Part shown: in pieces, positions 1-6,162 of the stretch
How the letters are laid out: each line of letters opens with the position of its first letter
How positions within the stretch are numbered: the stretch's first letter is position 1
NCBI GenBank assembly: GCA_030654695.1
Contig: JAURWY010000030.1
Span: forward strand, 1-64,000
Reading direction: 5' to 3'
DNA length: 64,000 nucleotides
Origin: Polaromonas sp.
Lineage (GTDB): Bacteria > Pseudomonadota > Gammaproteobacteria > Burkholderiales > Burkholderiaceae_C
Made by a program: the position numbers and the translations under genes
Notes under the pieces: generated by a model
Told to the model about the DNA's origin: nothing
Database searches by the model: none
The model's input: the letters and a program-made list of their open reading frames with translations, nothing else

Positions 1-111
1 ACCAGCCTGTCCACCGTGCGGCAGTGGGAGATCGGCGACAAGCACCCCAGCGGCCCGTCACAGAAGCTTTTGAGCCTGCTAGACCGCAAAGGGCTTGAGG
101 CGCTGATTTGA
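1..111 (+). CDS. C-terminal end of a HTH (XRE/HigA-NadS type) antitoxin-like protein, cut by the window edge
   Basis: Frame 1 is open from the first base to a TGA at 109-111 and gives 36 residues. They contain 'STVRQWEIGDKHPSGPSQ' and end in 'LLDRKGLEALI'. A 'VSxxTVxxWExGxxxPSGP' helix followed by a short 'LL' helix is typical of the C-terminal part of HigA/NadS-like HTH antitoxins, in which the HTH lies at the end of the protein. The cognate toxin, if present, should lie upstream outside the window. The family call is inference from this short tail; that it is the end of a real gene is fairly secure. Confidence 0.6.
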   Translation, partial: TSLSTVRQWEIGDKHPSGPSQKLLSLLDRKGLEALI

Positions 112-170
112 TGACATCTCCAGCAACCCAGCCAGCATCTGAGCCGCATGCTGCTTTTGACTGCACAATA

Positions 171-215
171 TGAAGGCTGAACCGGTATGAAGGAAAAAGT
201 GCAGCCTTCAGTCAG
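171..215. repeat. Left 45-bp palindromic repeat of the element
   Basis: Left copy of the boundary repeat. It holds a perfect 9-bp inverted repeat (171-179 with 202-210) around a 22-base centre that includes AACCGGT. The same 45-bp unit recurs at 1591-1635. It could be the transposase-binding end or a dispersed palindromic repeat that the element targets. Confidence 0.6.
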
Positions 216-289
216 CTGACGATGGCCAGCCATAATTACTTATTAAGAAATATAAAAAGTAAAATTTATAACTTTTTAGTTATAAATTT

Positions 290-1411
290 ATGTTGCTTTT
301 GATCGGAATTATTTTTGGGCTTGTCGCTGGCATATGCATCGGCACTCTCATCACGCGGAAATCACGACGTTTTTGGCAATGGCGGCTTGGGCGAAAGCTT
401 CAATTGATCGCCGCGCGCAATGAGATGAAAGGCTACCGCCACAAGCGCAAACGTCCCATGCTGACACGCTGGCAACAGTGTCTGTTGGGCTGGCTGCACC
501 ATGCTGCACCCACCTTGACCCGGTACACCAACTTCAGGCCAGAAACACTGGTTGGCTGGCATCGGCGCTTGTCCAAATTCAACTGGTGGATGAAGATTGT
601 TGCGGGCAAACGGCGTGCCGCAGGGCGACCCCGCATTGACGCATCAATTGAAAAAATTATCATTGACATCGACGCAGACAATCCCGGCTACGGCAGCATG
701 CGCATCAGCTTTATGGTGACGGAACAACTCGGTATAAAAATATCGCAAACAACCGTTCGAAACATTCTGAACCGCAACCTCTCCCGCCCAACCAAGCCTC
801 GCAACTCCGTGAGGGGCCAGCACTGGAATACTTTCCTAAGCAATCACTGCGGCACCATGGCATCCATGGACTTCAAGGTCACCTTTGATTGGCGGGGCAA
901 GTTACTCCACATTTTGAACGTGATGGACCATCAACGTCGTGAGCTTGTAGTGTGCCGGGCCACCTACAACCCAAGCAGTGAATGGGTGGCACAGCAAATC
1001 CGGGATGCCTACCCATTTGACGAGGCCCCAAAGCAGATGTTGATGGACCACGACTCTATCTTTTTGCCCTTGGTCCACAACTTGTTACCCAGCATGGGCA
1101 TCAAGGTCTTCCGGACCAGCGTGGGTTGTCCCTGGCAAAACGGTGTGGTGGAACGGTTTAACCGCACGCTGACTGTGGAACTGTTGAACCACATCATCCC
1201 CATCAGTGCCCAGCACACCAACCGCTTGCTGAAACAGTACATGAAGTTCTACAACACAGCCCGGCCACATCGGGCCAATGCTGGGCAATCGCCCAATCAG
1301 CAGGTGCAGGGAATTTCAGCGAATGAGGCTACTTTCATGCCAAGCACGTTGAGAGCGCAAGCCATTCCGTGGCTGGGTGGGCTGCACCACAGTTATCGCC
1401 GCGCAGCGTAG
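290..1411 (+). CDS. Transposase of the integrase-core (rve, DDE) type
   Basis: 373 residues. The N-terminus is hydrophobic (about 1-21) and followed by a basic stretch, as in the common single-ORF integrase-core transposases. A helical DNA-binding region with 'FRPETLVGWHRR' (about 82-92) and 'GRPRIDASI' (about 112-120) precedes the catalytic core. Likely acidic catalytic residues are D194 in 'ASMDFKV', D253 or D255 in 'LMDHDS', and E288 in 'WQNGVVERFNRT', about 35 residues downstream as expected for DDE enzymes. 'TARPHRANAGQSPNQQ' near the end matches the family's C-terminal motif. The gene is complete and is the only ORF in the element. The upstream region is very AT-rich. The fold is certain; the IS family is not assigned. 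Confidence 0.85.
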   Translation: MLLLIGIIFGLVAGICIGTLITRKSRRFWQWRLGRKLQLIAARNEMKGYRHKRKRPMLTRWQQCLLGWLHHAAPTLTRYTNFRPETLVGWHRRLSKFNWWMKIVAGKRRAAGRPRIDASIEKIIIDIDADNPGYGSMRISFMVTEQLGIKISQTTVRNILNRNLSRPTKPRNSVRGQHWNTFLSNHCGTMASMDFKVTFDWRGKLLHILNVMDHQRRELVVCRATYNPSSEWVAQQIRDAYPFDEAPKQMLMDHDSIFLPLVHNLLPSMGIKVFRTSVGCPWQNGVVERFNRTLTVELLNHIIPISAQHTNRLLKQYMKFYNTARPHRANAGQSPNQQVQGISANEATFMPSTLRAQAIPWLGGLHHSYRRAA

Positions 1412-1590
1412 CGAAATCAACCGTTTCGAATTCTGGATATCGGCAGCAACCGCCGAGAAATGAGTATGTCCGGATGTTTGGAAATACTTTTTTGAGAACG
1501 ACGAGACCGGCAATTTGCTTAGAAAAACAACTTGATATATCAGTGCACCTGTTCAAGTCGCAACCCCGAGTGCCTGGCGGTCATCCAAAA

Positions 1591-1635
1591 TGAAGGCGGA
1601 ACCGGTCAGACGGAATAAGTGCACCCTTCAATCAG
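1591..1635. repeat. Right 45-bp palindromic repeat of the element
   Basis: Second copy of the 45-bp unit, in the same orientation as the left copy and differing at seven positions. Its arms are less perfect (TGAAGG with CCTTCA). Recombinase-like coding sequence starts immediately after it. Confidence 0.6.
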
Positions 1636-2102
1636 TGCTAGCAGGCTTGCGTGTTAGCGAGATTGCCTGTTTGACAATTGGGGATGTGCGTGAGCATGAC
1701 GGCAGCATACGAACAGAAGTTTATCTAGCTGCTGCTCGTGTGAAGAACGCCAACGCACGTACGGTGTTCATCAACACACGCTTGCAGCAAATGTTGGCGC
1801 TTTATATTGCTGAACGCACGTGGCACACACTAGATCAGCCCTTGTTCTGCACCATACGCGGTGTGCGTTGTGGCTTCACAGCCAACACACTTGCGCAGCA
1901 CTTCCACTACTTGTACAAACGTGCGGGTGTTAAAGGTGCCAGCTCGCACTCAGGTCGCAAGACATTTCTAACCAGCTTGGCAAGTCAAGGCGTCAGCGTG
2001 TTTGTCTTGGCGGCGCTGGCTGGGCATAAGAGCATTGCTACAACACAGAAATATATTACGGTAAACGACGACACCAAGCGCCGTGCAGTTGAGTTGGTTT
2101 AA
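1627..2102 (+). pseudogene. Tyrosine recombinase, 5'-truncated catalytic domain
   Basis: From about 1636 the frame reads 'VLAGLRVSEIACLTIGDV', carrying the first catalytic Arg of a phage-type (tyrosine) integrase. It continues to 'SSHSGRKTFLTS' (the HxxR box), 'LAGHKSIATTQKY' (the third-box residue and the nucleophilic Tyr) and stops at 2102. The whole N-terminal SAM-like domain and the start of the catalytic domain are missing. An open frame from 1590 runs through the element's right repeat and is not a natural start. No matching N-terminal half lies on the left side of the element (111-170), so this is a remnant left by insertion plus deletion. A short expressed protein is unlikely to be active. 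Confidence 0.8.
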
Positions 2103-2830
2103 TACAAGTCGTCATCTGGTAACGCCAACATGGCTCGTAACTTTTCGCTTCTGTCCGTTGCCTGCGTGTGATTAGCTGCAAGAATTTCAGACTCAAGTGC
2201 AGGCTCGTACAACAAAGCGCATGCTGCTACTGTGAGTGCTTGCTGTTGGCATGACAGCTTGCGCTGTAGTTTGTCCTGCTTGTTAGAACCAGCTGCTGCT
2301 AGACAATACTTGTTGCGACTTCCGACAACACGTGCAACACCCACGCAGTCAATTGATATGTTGCCAGTTGGACTCGTGTTGAAATCTCTGTCCAGCCATG
2401 CACGTATTGCATTTTCGGTTTGTGCATCTACAGCACCCAACTGTTCATCCAAGTATTCACATGCACGTTCGTACTGGTGTTCTGCTTGCTGTCGCAGCTT
2501 GACAGCTTTGTTGTAGCGCGTTGAACTTCGGCTTGCTGCATCTGCGCGTGAATTAAACCTGTCTGCTGCAACAATCAGCTCGGCATAGTGCACGATGACA
2601 TCTGGTTTGCCATCGAGACTTATTACTTCCAATAAACTTGTTGGTGCCGACACCTCGCTGCAGTAACGCTCGTACTCGTCTGCAGTCAACACGCTGCGCA
2701 GCGCTCGTGACAACACGCCTACATCTGGATTGTTCAGCATCGCACACACACGTTCAAGCTGCGCAGATTCTTTGCCCGTTAGTGCACGGAACGGTTGCAA
2801 GGTATCCTGCACGCCGCACTGTCGCAGCAC
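2099..2830 (-). CDS. Hypothetical protein, unknown family
   Basis: 243 residues from a GTG at 2830 with no visible Shine-Dalgarno. I do not recognise the family. It is mixed charged/helical with a likely coiled coil around residues 95-130 ('KLRQQAEHQYERACEYLDEQL') and a possible second helical stretch near 185-200. There is no signal peptide or membrane segment. The reading frame stays open for about 28 codons upstream of the GTG and looks coding ('QLAQPLNASNLQHRAQS'), so the start is doubtful and the gene may be the continuation of the 2862-3113 ORF after a frameshift. It is convergent with the recombinase remnant; the two stop codons overlap. Confidence 0.55.
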   Translation of the reverse strand: MLRQCGVQDTLQPFRALTGKESAQLERVCAMLNNPDVGVLSRALRSVLTADEYERYCSEVSAPTSLLEVISLDGKPDVIVHYAELIVAADRFNSRADAASRSSTRYNKAVKLRQQAEHQYERACEYLDEQLGAVDAQTENAIRAWLDRDFNTSPTGNISIDCVGVARVVGSRNKYCLAAAGSNKQDKLQRKLSCQQQALTVAACALLYEPALESEILAANHTQATDRSEKLRAMLALPDDDLY

Positions 2831-2861
2831 CGACTGTGCGCGGTGCTGTAAGTTACTGGCG

Positions 2862-3113
2862 TTAAGTGGCTGTGCGAGCTGCGGGACTTTTACGAGGCGT
2901 TACCGTGCCAACTTTCTTTGCGCGTTTTTGTTTCAACTCAGGTGCCAAATCTTTAGCAGTAAATCCGTGCTGCTTGATGAATAGCTTTGCTTGAATCAGG
3001 TTCTGCTCACGTGATGCTCTCAGCAGAGTTTCAACCCTCGTGTTGCTCTCAGTTTGTTGCTTGAGTGCCGCTGCCAGTTCCGCGTTGCTGTCTGGATTTT
3101 GTGCATCTGCCAT
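2862..3113 (-). CDS. Hypothetical small protein, weakly H-NS-like motif
   Basis: 83 residues from ATG at 3113, preceded by AAGGTG at good spacing, so the start is well supported. The N-terminal half is a Gln/Glu-rich helix ('LAAALKQQTESNTRVETLL'), then 'FIKQHGFTAKDLAPEL' and a basic tail. The 'HGFTAKDL' segment recalls the linker of H-NS-type proteins, but the H-NS DNA-binding motif is absent, so this is only a resemblance. It may be translated into the downstream 2099-2830 frame if a frameshift joins them. Confidence 0.5.
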   Translation of the reverse strand: MADAQNPDSNAELAAALKQQTESNTRVETLLRASREQNLIQAKLFIKQHGFTAKDLAPELKQKRAKKVGTVTPRKSPAARTAT

Positions 3114-3573: not shown

Positions 3574-6162
3574 TTAGATGTTATTTGCTTCAAGGTTGAG
3601 TTTGAGTAGATCAAGGTTAACTAAACCAGTCAATTGAATCAATTGGTCACCAGCATCCAACAAATCATTGCCACCATCGACGTAAACGTATGTGTTTCCA
3701 CCGAATTGGAAGATCGCTGCGTCATCGGCTGTGGCAGTAGAGGCTGCTGCAACTTGTGTCAATACGGCACCCAAAGTAGTTCCTGTCAGACCAGTAGTTA
3801 CCTTAACAAATAAGTCTGTTGCAACTGCAGTATCAACTACGAGGATGTCAGACTTGTTTGCATTCAGAGTTCCATCTGCATTGGCAACAAGAGTGAAGCC
3901 ATTTACTGTATCCATCTTGTCATAGGTTGATTTGACGGTGATAGCGTCTTTTCCAGCACCCAAGGATATTGTTTCAGCCAAGGTAAGGTTGCCAGTGTAA
4001 GTCAAGCCACCGAGCGGCAAGCCAGCGCTTGCTCCAGCCAATGCAGATTGAACACCACCCAATTGTGATGCATCAACTGTAACTAGCTTTGAAGCAGCGA
4101 CAGTGGTTGTACCTACAACTGCTGAGTTATCAATTACAACTGCACCAACCCCAGACAAGGTAACTGAAGTCAGGTTGCCGTTTTCAGACAACTGAAGTCC
4201 TGACGATGTAACAGCAAAAGTCGGAGCGATAGTCACCGTAGAAATGACATCAGCACTTGGCGCTTGCACGAAGTTAGCACCAGCAGTCAGATTAACAGTC
4301 AATGATTTCACATCGCCTGCAATTGTTACTGAGGATGCTGACTGATCACCAGCTGAACCAGTGTTAGTTGCAACAATATTTCCAACATTAACGGTTGCTG
4401 ATGCGGCATTGATACTTACTGTTTTGGATGCACCCGAGGCATTGACTGCAAGGTTGCCACCATAAGAAGTGTCAGTTAGGCTAGCTGCCAAAGCTGCTGT
4501 AGAGCCTTTACCAACGTAAGAAGCAGAAGTCAAAGCTGCAGTAATTGCCGTGTTGACAGTTTGTGCATCAGCCAACTTGGTGAACGTTGCAGTTGTTGCA
4601 CCTGCATCCAGAATTGTGAACTGGCTAACTTTGGAAGCATCCAACGATGTTGTTGTCACGAACTCAGCACGTTCAAAGCCGCTTGTTTGCGATGCGATAA
4701 GTGCCAATTCACCGGCATTCAATGCAGTACTTGCAGCAGTGAATTTCAGTTTGTCAGTACCTTCACCACCGTTCAGAAAAACATTGACTGACAGCAAAGT
4801 ACCTGCAATTGCGACTGTATCGTTACCCGTACCAGCATCAACGGTGACGGACCCTGTGCCTGTGCCAGAGACAGTAATGATGTCATTACCAGCACCACCA
4901 ACGATAGAAGCGGATGCCATTGTGGAACTAGCCGCAACAGTTTCGAAGGTTACGTCGAGAACATCGTTACCTGATCCACCGACAACAGTTGTGAGTGTTG
5001 ATTCGCTGATAGCAGCTGTAATTGCACCAGTTGAACCAGCTGCGTTAAAAGTCACCAACTTGTCCATGCCCGATGTAACAACAGTGGCACCGGAGGTCAA
5101 ATTCAGGTTCAAGGTCTTGATTGTGTCAGAGGCACCCAGCGCGTCAACCAATGTAATTGAACCTGCAGTTGCTTGAACATTGCCAGTTGCAGCTACGGCT
5201 TTAACCGTTCCTGAGACATTGGCCGTCACAACAGTAGTGGTTGCAGTAGCGGAGGAATTGTCATCCAAAGTTACCGAACCTGATGCTGCTTTGAGAGCAA
5301 TGTTTGCGGCAGTTGCGCCGGCTGTGTACTTGAGCGTATTCAGCATTGAAGCACCGCTCAATTCAACTGTCTGTGTCGTCAGCCCAGTTACTGTTGTGGC
5401 GCTGCCATCAATAGCAATTGCAGTGGAACCAACGAACTGGGCTGCATCTAGCGTCGCAATGAGAGTTTTACCAGCAGCTGCAGTGGTCGCAGCAGTCAGG
5501 TTAATAGCGGCAGTTGCATCGGCAGTAGCCGCAGTAGCGACAGCAGTGGTAGCTGCAGCTGCACCGGCATCAGCAGAAATTTTTGCGCTTGCAGCGGCAG
5601 ATGCAAGCGTATCAGCGCGGGCCAAAATTGTCGATTCCACAGTAATTGCAACACCAGCGGAATCCTTCTGTGCAGCAATAGCAGCGGCCTTGTACTGGGC
5701 CAAAGTGTAAGTTGTTGCAGGACTCACTGTCGCATCCGCGACAGCTTCGATATCAGCCTGCGCTGCTATCGCAGCAACAGCATCGGCAGCAAGTTTCAAT
5801 TGCGCAGCAGTGGCAGCCGCAGCAGTGGCAATGCTTGAAGCAGTCCCGGCCGCTGTCAAATCAGCTGCTGTTGCGACTTTAGTAGCCGTAGCTGTAGTTT
5901 TTGCAGCAAGGATGGCAGCATCGGCAACACTGATGCCAACAAAGTCCGAGCCTTTAACATTGATGTTTTCAACGTTCTTGACCGTCACGCCTGTCAGGCT
6001 GTTGTTCGAAGCAGCAGTTGCCGTGATGTTCAGGGTGTCAACACCTGCACCGCCGTCAATGGAGTCACCGGATGTCAGCGTTGTTGCAGCTGCACCAGTC
6101 GTTGGGTTCACAGCGCTTGCCGTGAACGTGTCGTTACCCGAAGTACCTACCAAAGTGTCCAC
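3574..6162 (-). CDS. Large secreted Ala/Thr-rich surface protein, S-layer/RTX-like beta-repeat protein
   Basis: 862 residues when started at the only available codon, GTG at 6162. It opens 'DTLVGTSGNDTFTAS' and carries several RTX-like Gly-Asp motifs ('GGSGNDVLDV', 'GGAGNDIITV', 'DAGTGNDTVAI', 'NGGEGTDKLKF' at about 400-480). There are long beta-strand repeats rich in T, V, S and A, an alanine-rich segment at about 85-240, and a C-terminus ('FQFGGNTYVYVDGGNDLL' then 'DLLKLNLEANNI') of the kind seen in type I-secreted S-layer-like proteins. There is no cysteine and no Sec signal peptide. Family knowledge suggests export by an ABC (type I) system and a role in the cell envelope; no transporter is in the window. 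The start is problematic: homologous-looking codons ('SFTLTAS') precede the GTG and run into a TAA. Confidence 0.75.
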   Translation of the reverse strand: MDTLVGTSGNDTFTASAVNPTTGAAATTLTSGDSIDGGAGVDTLNITATAASNNSLTGVTVKNVENINVKGSDFVGISVADAAILAAKTTATATKVATAADLTAAGTASSIATAAAATAAQLKLAADAVAAIAAQADIEAVADATVSPATTYTLAQYKAAAIAAQKDSAGVAITVESTILARADTLASAAASAKISADAGAAAATTAVATAATADATAAINLTAATTAAAGKTLIATLDAAQFVGSTAIAIDGSATTVTGLTTQTVELSGASMLNTLKYTAGATAANIALKAASGSVTLDDNSSATATTTVVTANVSGTVKAVAATGNVQATAGSITLVDALGASDTIKTLNLNLTSGATVVTSGMDKLVTFNAAGSTGAITAAISESTLTTVVGGSGNDVLDVTFETVAASSTMASASIVGGAGNDIITVSGTGTGSVTVDAGTGNDTVAIAGTLLSVNVFLNGGEGTDKLKFTAASTALNAGELALIASQTSGFERAEFVTTTSLDASKVSQFTILDAGATTATFTKLADAQTVNTAITAALTSASYVGKGSTAALAASLTDTSYGGNLAVNASGASKTVSINAASATVNVGNIVATNTGSAGDQSASSVTIAGDVKSLTVNLTAGANFVQAPSADVISTVTIAPTFAVTSSGLQLSENGNLTSVTLSGVGAVVIDNSAVVGTTTVAASKLVTVDASQLGGVQSALAGASAGLPLGGLTYTGNLTLAETISLGAGKDAITVKSTYDKMDTVNGFTLVANADGTLNANKSDILVVDTAVATDLFVKVTTGLTGTTLGAVLTQVAAASTATADDAAIFQFGGNTYVYVDGGNDLLDAGDQLIQLTGLVNLDLLKLNLEANNI

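What the first reader, a model, noticed from the sequence alone, without database searches (positions are those of the whole stretch)
171..1635. Transposon bounded by large palindromes arranged as direct repeats
Most insertion sequences end in inverted repeats. Here a 45-bp unit, itself a near-palindrome (TGAAGG...CCTTCA, AACCGGT inside), sits at both ends in the same orientation. Because each unit is self-complementary it can serve as direct or inverted end, form a hairpin, or be a pre-existing repeat that the element targets. It could reflect hairpin-guided or repeat-targeted insertion by an integrase-core transposase.
Basis: partly seen in the sequence, partly recalled or inferred. Interest (0 to 1): 0.55.

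Follow-up and report, generated by a model that had tools for sequence, protein, structure and literature searches.

The report
Transposase inside a palindromic-repeat array
The paired palindromes are real, but they look like two of four same-facing copies in a short array rather than the two ends of one transposon: a jumping-gene enzyme sits among toxin-antitoxin genes bounded by the same repeat, beside a surface-layer-like gene.

Summary
In detail: near-palindromes at 171-210 (u3) and 1591-1630 (u4) lie in the same orientation, 34/40 identical. They do not look like a pair of transposon ends. The genome search found four copies at up to 3 mismatches; the other two are on contig C12, whose last 141 nt equal the window's first 141. 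Order: u1 - gene pair - u2 - toxin-antitoxin genes - u3 - transposase - u4 - tyrosine recombinase without its start. Two of the three stretches between units lack the transposase. A solo unit lies about 4 kb from a 72%-identical transposase in Rhodoferax (E=0.0012). A sequence like u4 follows the stop codon at about +178 to +228 in Rhodoferax (p 0.001-0.002) and more weakly in Stutzerimonas (p 0.008-0.048, uncorrected); no left unit exceeded shuffles there. Best reading: an IS481/IS3-like DDE element with a unit at its right boundary, inserted beside an existing unit, working like IS1202-family elements at dif sites but not a member. Left end, target duplication and activity are not shown. A cassette array worked by a site-specific recombinase is a serious rival.

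The parts
171..210 (+). left unit (u3): near-palindrome with a 9-bp stem; best read as the end of the preceding toxin-antitoxin stretch
   Evidence: together with 56 nt before it (115-170) it matches unit u1 and its upstream on C12 (83.5% over 97 nt)
1591..1630 (+). right unit (u4): right boundary of the transposase module
   Evidence: similar sequence after the stop codon in L035 (+177/178 to +221/224, p 0.001-0.002) and L036 (+193/195 to +228, p 0.008-0.048), uncorrected for 16 comparisons; L036 and L037 share 20 of 21 nt there; L037 against u4/u1 not significant (p 0.2-0.3)
290..1411 (+). IS481/IS3-like integrase-core transposase, 373 aa, open frame; D194, D253 and E288 identical in the three proteins aligned
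   Evidence: rve_3 E 1e-14; IS481 model E 1.7e-31, but 109.8 bits against cut-off 224; that these three are the catalytic residues is inferred from their spacing
262..289 (+). perfect 12-bp AT-rich inverted repeat with 4-nt loop, ending at the transposase start codon
1440..1456 (+). short hairpin TCGGC/GCCGA after the transposase stop, also in L035, L036 and L037
   Evidence: read by eye in the alignment; window 1428-1457 matches L035 at 86.7% over 30 nt
1633..2102 (+). tyrosine recombinase without its first codons
   Evidence: Phage_integrase E 2.2e-19; DNA similarity to the gene in L057 starts at 1633, 2 nt after u4 (a tblastn alignment starts at 1608 but matches poorly inside the unit)
1..111 (+). 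end of a helix-turn-helix antitoxin-like gene (L038 7156-7560 on C12) before the left unit
   Evidence: HTH_3 28.8 bits against cut-off 23

Best explanation
The palindromic units are boundary sites of a small array of modules that all face one way. The transposase module carries, or directly abuts, one unit at its right boundary (u4); the left unit (u3) belongs to the preceding toxin-antitoxin stretch. The module is an IS481/IS3-like DDE element that most likely inserted, in a fixed orientation, beside a unit already present: an earlier junction u3|recombinase became u3|transposase-u4|recombinase. Shown: four same-facing units, two of which (u1, u2) do not flank the transposase; a u4-like sequence after the transposase in the closest relative and, more weakly, in a second; no left unit above shuffles in those two; recombinase similarity starting 2 nt after u4. 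Inferred: that the transposase recognises the unit, that insertion is site-specific, and that the outer tip is TG...CA. Not shown: the left end, a target duplication, any activity.
For: Four direct units, no others in the genome at up to 3 mismatches, on two contigs that share an exact 141-nt end. u4-like sequence in L035 and L036; L036 and L037 share 20 of 21 nt. Hand-aligned right tips read TGAAGGGTGC (window), TGTAGGGTGC (L036, L037) and TGGAAGGCGC (L035), compatible with the TG...CA termini reported for IS481EU (passages of PMC10045372). Solo unit in the L035 genome. A second same-facing trace of this rare element near the first in L037 (C-terminal remnant 1.7 kb upstream) and in L035 (5' fragment 1.2 kb upstream). 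Recombinase similarity begins 2 nt after u4.
Against: No left end or target duplication was found for the four close elements. The tip matrix cannot decide: u3 scores 8.7, and so do sites at -456 in L035 and -204 in L036, all below the 95% background of 9.6. L037 against u4/u1 is not significant, and the p values are uncorrected for 16 comparisons. The unit model did not find the L035, L036 or L037 right-hand sequences at E up to 10. Right-hand sequences of L035, L036 and L037, the solo unit and u4 do not fold clearly better than shuffles (z -1.5, +1.7, +0.1, -0.2, +0.2). The L035 repeat includes a DUF6447-like gene and may be a segmental duplication. The C12-C25 join rests on an assembly overlap. 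No empty site. Solo units are equally expected of a cassette array.
Confidence: 0.45

Rival explanations
1. Cassette array: the units are recombination sites of a site-specific (probably tyrosine) recombinase, each module is a gene or genes plus a 3' site, and the transposase module is one passenger cassette.
For: Four same-facing units around unrelated gene sets, toxin-antitoxin genes among them; u1 and u3 share a 97-nt end; stem letters differ between species while parts of the inside persist; the Rhodoferax solo unit lies near a ParD-like antitoxin gene.
Against: No paired integron boxes in the 9.7 kb array stretch on either strand; no recombinase is shown to act on the units and the adjacent one lacks its start; one toxin-antitoxin pair faces the other way; the stretches hold several genes and gene remnants.
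Confidence: 0.25
2. One reading: u3 and u4 are the element's own left and right ends (171-1630), self-complementary or direct terminal repeats; solo units are scars left when the repeats recombined.
For: TGAAGGCTGAAC on the left and TGAAGGGTGCAC (reverse complement of the right) agree in 10 of 12 as an inverted tip (read); a distant relative, L043, may have inverted repeats at similar distances (score 25; shuffle 95% point 24, maximum 28).
Against: No left unit above shuffles in L035 or L036; whole-unit similarity is direct (62), not inverted (18, below the shuffle 95% point); u3 with the 56 nt before it matches u1, not the transposase side; no target duplication visible by eye.
Confidence: 0.15
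3. The units are ordinary local repeats or relics spread by tandem duplication in a decaying island, with no role in mobility; the transposase landed there by chance.
For: The region holds gene remnants; u4's hairpin is no better than shuffles; within-array covariation is not above shuffles.
Against: A u4-like sequence at a similar distance after the stop in L035 and L036; recombinase similarity begins 2 nt after u4. Not a clear intrinsic terminator: 2 sites found in 1-2200 with 2.9 expected, one of them overlapping u3.
Confidence: 0.1

Closest known systems
IS1202 family (ISAjo2, ISAba32) at dif/pdif sites of dif modules in Acinetobacter
   Same: DDE insertion sequence of about 1.5 kb found in one orientation beside a recombination site that bounds gene modules (PMC10132070: abstract and passages)
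   Different: Those encode 441-457 aa transposases with 24-26 bp terminal inverted repeats and 5-bp duplications; here 373 aa and neither of the other features found; the dif arm letters given in that paper (TTATGTTAATT/TTATGTTAAAT) are not in the units
IS481 family
   Same: Best family model for the transposase; possible TG...CA tip
   Different: Score below the curated cut-off; no inverted-repeat pair or target duplication found
Integron gene cassettes with attC sites
   Same: Same-facing imperfect palindromes between gene sets, toxin-antitoxin cargo
   Different: No paired attC boxes; no integron integrase recognised beside the array; the genome was not searched for one
Insertion sequences that hit REP or other palindromes (PMC1525189, search listing only; IS1272 inverted-repeat replacing, PMC5678879, abstract)
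   Same: Palindromic target
   Different: Here only four copies of the palindrome, and a unit-like sequence follows the transposase in other genera

Membership tests
IS481 family | transposase reaches the curated family score | tested here: not met
   109.8 bits against cut-off 224 for NF033577; the IS3 model also below its cut-off, 89.6 against 160
IS481 family | terminal inverted repeats | tested here: inconclusive
   best flank pair below the shuffle 95% point for window, L036 and L037; L035 26 (95% point 22, maximum 28). Among six distant relatives L007 is clear (40, maximum 27), L047 and L043 marginal, L044-L046 below, though L044 has 49-nt repeats further out
IS481 family | target duplication (2-15 bp, PMC10045372 passage) | tested here: inconclusive
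   no shared bases by eye outside 171 and 1630; the true left end is unknown
IS1202 family | 441-457 aa transposase with 24-26 bp inverted repeats and 5-bp duplication | tested here: not met
   373 aa; no such repeats; ISNCY_2 model 22.5 bits against cut-off 250; no direct comparison with ISAjo2 made
IS1202 family | fixed orientation beside a recombination site | tested here: inconclusive
   units and transposase face one way in the window array and in L035/L079, but the unit is not shown to be a recombination site
Integron cassette array | attC boxes RYYYAAC...GTTRRRY (recalled) | tested here: not met
   0 pairs 40-160 nt apart in 9,749 nt of C12 end plus window start, either strand
Integron cassette array | integron integrase in the genome | not tested
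   the fragment beside u4 fits XerA/XerC models better than integrase_gron
REP / REPIN repeats | many dispersed copies per genome | tested here: not met
   4 copies in one region; of 87 genomes of the genus only the own genome matched

The most novel reading that the evidence does not exclude
A gene-cassette array of a new kind: 40-nt palindromic sites that are neither attC nor dif bound toxin-antitoxin modules beside surface-layer-like genes, and a DDE transposase travels as a module carrying the same site, inserting next to existing sites so that the array grows in one direction.
Probability: 0.2. Interest if true: 0.75.

Novelty: new variant of a known kind. Interest (0 to 1): 0.42.

Why it matters
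If right, it adds a second, independent case of a DDE insertion sequence that settles in one orientation beside a module-bounding site, as IS1202-family elements do at dif sites, with a different transposase subgroup and a different site. It would also give a tractable example of how toxin-antitoxin modules gather beside surface-layer-like loci.

Tried and rejected
Inverted-repeat ends: local alignment of 5' and 3' flanks against 200 shuffles put window, L036 and L037 below the 95% point; L035, L043 and L047 were marginal and only L007 clear. Left tips by a small matrix: nothing exceeded the 95% background of 9.6; window u3 8.7, L035 8.7 (-456), L036 8.7 (-204), L037 6.4 (-362). So this test neither confirms u3 as a left end nor excludes left tips in the relatives.

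Integron sites: no paired boxes in the array (four pairs per strand occur by chance in 20 kb of L079). Terminator: not above expectation. Rfam at gathering scores: three tRNAs in the window, nothing in L038. Spread of the unit: own genome only among 87 of the genus; in 299 genomes of the family the own genome and 8 others matched a shorter pattern, the 8 all with 3 mismatches, which I took for chance without inspecting them (the reversed control hit 1 genome); plasmids gave only weak hits for u1 (7 records, best E 0.2) and for the L036 right-hand sequence (10 records, best E 0.4); four viral-contig pattern scans gave 0, 0, 1 and 0 stretches, the one lying inside a phage reading frame.

Transposase relatives: 3 loci in the genome-contig scan; 22 of 101 genomes, own included, at E 1e-3, the best other 44% identical; 1 of 399 in the family (own) and 6 of 369 in the class (own included) at E 1e-40; 1 of 56 Stutzerimonas genomes, the source; 457 plasmid records, each under 60% identity; 3 phage records; no viral-contig locus confirmed; no solved structure matched. 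Empty site: the L036 locus matched only its own genome of 56, with at most 5 candidates scored in the others. No structure was predicted.

Full report
What is there. The window starts contig C25 of a 3.45 Mb genome in 34 contigs. Near-palindromes lie at 171-210 (u3) and 1591-1630 (u4) in the same orientation, 34 of 40 positions identical; the direct alignment scores 62 while 300 shuffles reach at most 28. A genome search with up to 3 mismatches found four copies and none for the reversed control. The other two, u1 and u2, are at C12:218236 and C12:219308. The last 141 nt of C12 are identical to the first 141 nt of the window; a search with window 1-170 found that stretch on these two contigs only. 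So C12 most likely runs into the window, giving four same-facing units with about 1.1, 2.3 and 1.4 kb between starts.

What lies between. Between u1 and u2 are a small two-gene pair, toxin-antitoxin-like by layout (no Pfam match; the second gene has a weak NsnC match), and remnants of antitoxin genes: one by search, one by eye. Between u2 and u3 are a TumE toxin with an HVO_A0114-type partner on the other strand, an HTH_37 antitoxin-like gene and an HTH_3 gene with a sub-threshold MqsA match, plus a stretch similar to RelE/ParE-HTH pairs of plasmids. Between u3 and u4 is the transposase. After u4 comes a tyrosine recombinase without its start: DNA similarity to a 70% identical gene on a viral contig begins at 1633, 2 nt after the unit. 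Six recombinase matches in the genome include no separate start fragment. u1 and u3 also share the 56-57 nt before the unit (83.5% over 97 nt); u2 shares about 14 of these with u1, and u4 shares only a few bases.

The transposase. It is 373 aa with an integrase core (rve_3, E 1e-14). The best family model is IS481, then IS3, both below their cut-offs. Close relatives are rare: Rhodoferax L035 (72%, with an internal stop codon), Stutzerimonas L036 (60%) and Comamonas L037 (56%).

Which unit goes with it. In 400 nt after the stop codon L035 matches u4 and u1 at +177/178 to +221/224 (p 0.002 and 0.001), and L036 at +193/195 to +228 (p 0.048 and 0.008). L037 does not reach significance against either (p 0.31, 0.21), nor does its remnant copy, but it shares 20 of 21 nt with L036 at that place. 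Four more distant relatives (L043, L044, L045, L047) show nothing. These are 16 comparisons, uncorrected, against approximate shuffles. In 700 nt upstream, no unit exceeded shuffles in L035 or L036; L035's inverted match and L037's direct match equal the 95% point, the latter beside a remnant of an earlier transposase copy. The right unit therefore seems tied to the transposase, the left one not.

Solo units. A covariance model of the four units, run over 20 sources (219 kb), found one further match below E 0.5: Rhodoferax L079 8900-8946, E 0.0012. It faces the same way as the L035 transposase, which starts about 4 kb further on, and lies near an integrase-like fragment (by eye; no Pfam match) and a ParD-like antitoxin gene. 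The model did not recover the L035, L036 or L037 right-hand sequences, so their kinship rests alone.

Structure. Hairpin strength clearly exceeds shuffles for u1 and u3 only; u2 is weak, and u4, the solo unit and the right-hand sequences of L036 and L037 are not above shuffles, with L035 weak (z -1.5). Within the array covariation is not above shuffles. Stem letters change between species, which hints at structure but rests on few sequences. A role for a hairpin is therefore open.

Mechanism and standing. The simplest account is an IS481/IS3-like element with a unit at its right boundary, inserted beside an existing unit. [quoted passage not shown] Membership there is not claimed: protein length and ends differ. 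Whether the unit is the element's own end or an adjacent target is open; the hand-aligned tips favour an end, the solo units favour a site. A cassette array remains the main rival.

Literature. Four searches (118, 27, 4 and 77 papers, of which 15, 15, 4 and 15 were listed) showed no description of this arrangement in their listings; the library holds open-licence papers only, so this is no proof of absence.

Noticed in passing
window 3574-6162 (-); L079 15897-19328 (-); L036 4564-6999 (-): In three of the four close transposase loci a large RTX/DUF4214-type gene (surface-layer label recalled) lies nearby, convergent with the transposase; the window's match to the RTX model is under its cut-off. 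Near window, C12 and L035 there are also DUF6447-like small genes, under the Pfam cut-off. L037, with 4.7 kb held, shows no such gene among its listed frames.
   Followed up: partly
window 290-350: The transposase begins with a strongly hydrophobic stretch (19-residue mean 2.7), seen also in L035 and G040/L006 and more weakly in L036 and L037: possibly a membrane-facing N-terminus, unusual for a transposase.
   Followed up: partly
window 1376-1408: The C-terminal motif GGLHHxY recurs in eight relatives read here (L035-L037, L043-L047) and is absent from L007, suggesting a distinct subgroup of integrase-core proteins.
   Followed up: no
L044 717-765 and 2426-2474: A distant transposase relative is flanked by 49-nt inverted repeats (92%) that also enclose a further reading frame: ordinary ends occur in this wider group.
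   Followed up: no
window 262-289: Perfect 12-bp AT-rich hairpin ending at the transposase start codon, possibly a translation control.
   Followed up: no
window 2862-3113 (-): Small protein with a KQHGFTA motif, also seen by eye near the recombinase relative on viral contig L057 (4781-5029), hinting that 1633-3113 is a phage or plasmid remnant.
   Followed up: no
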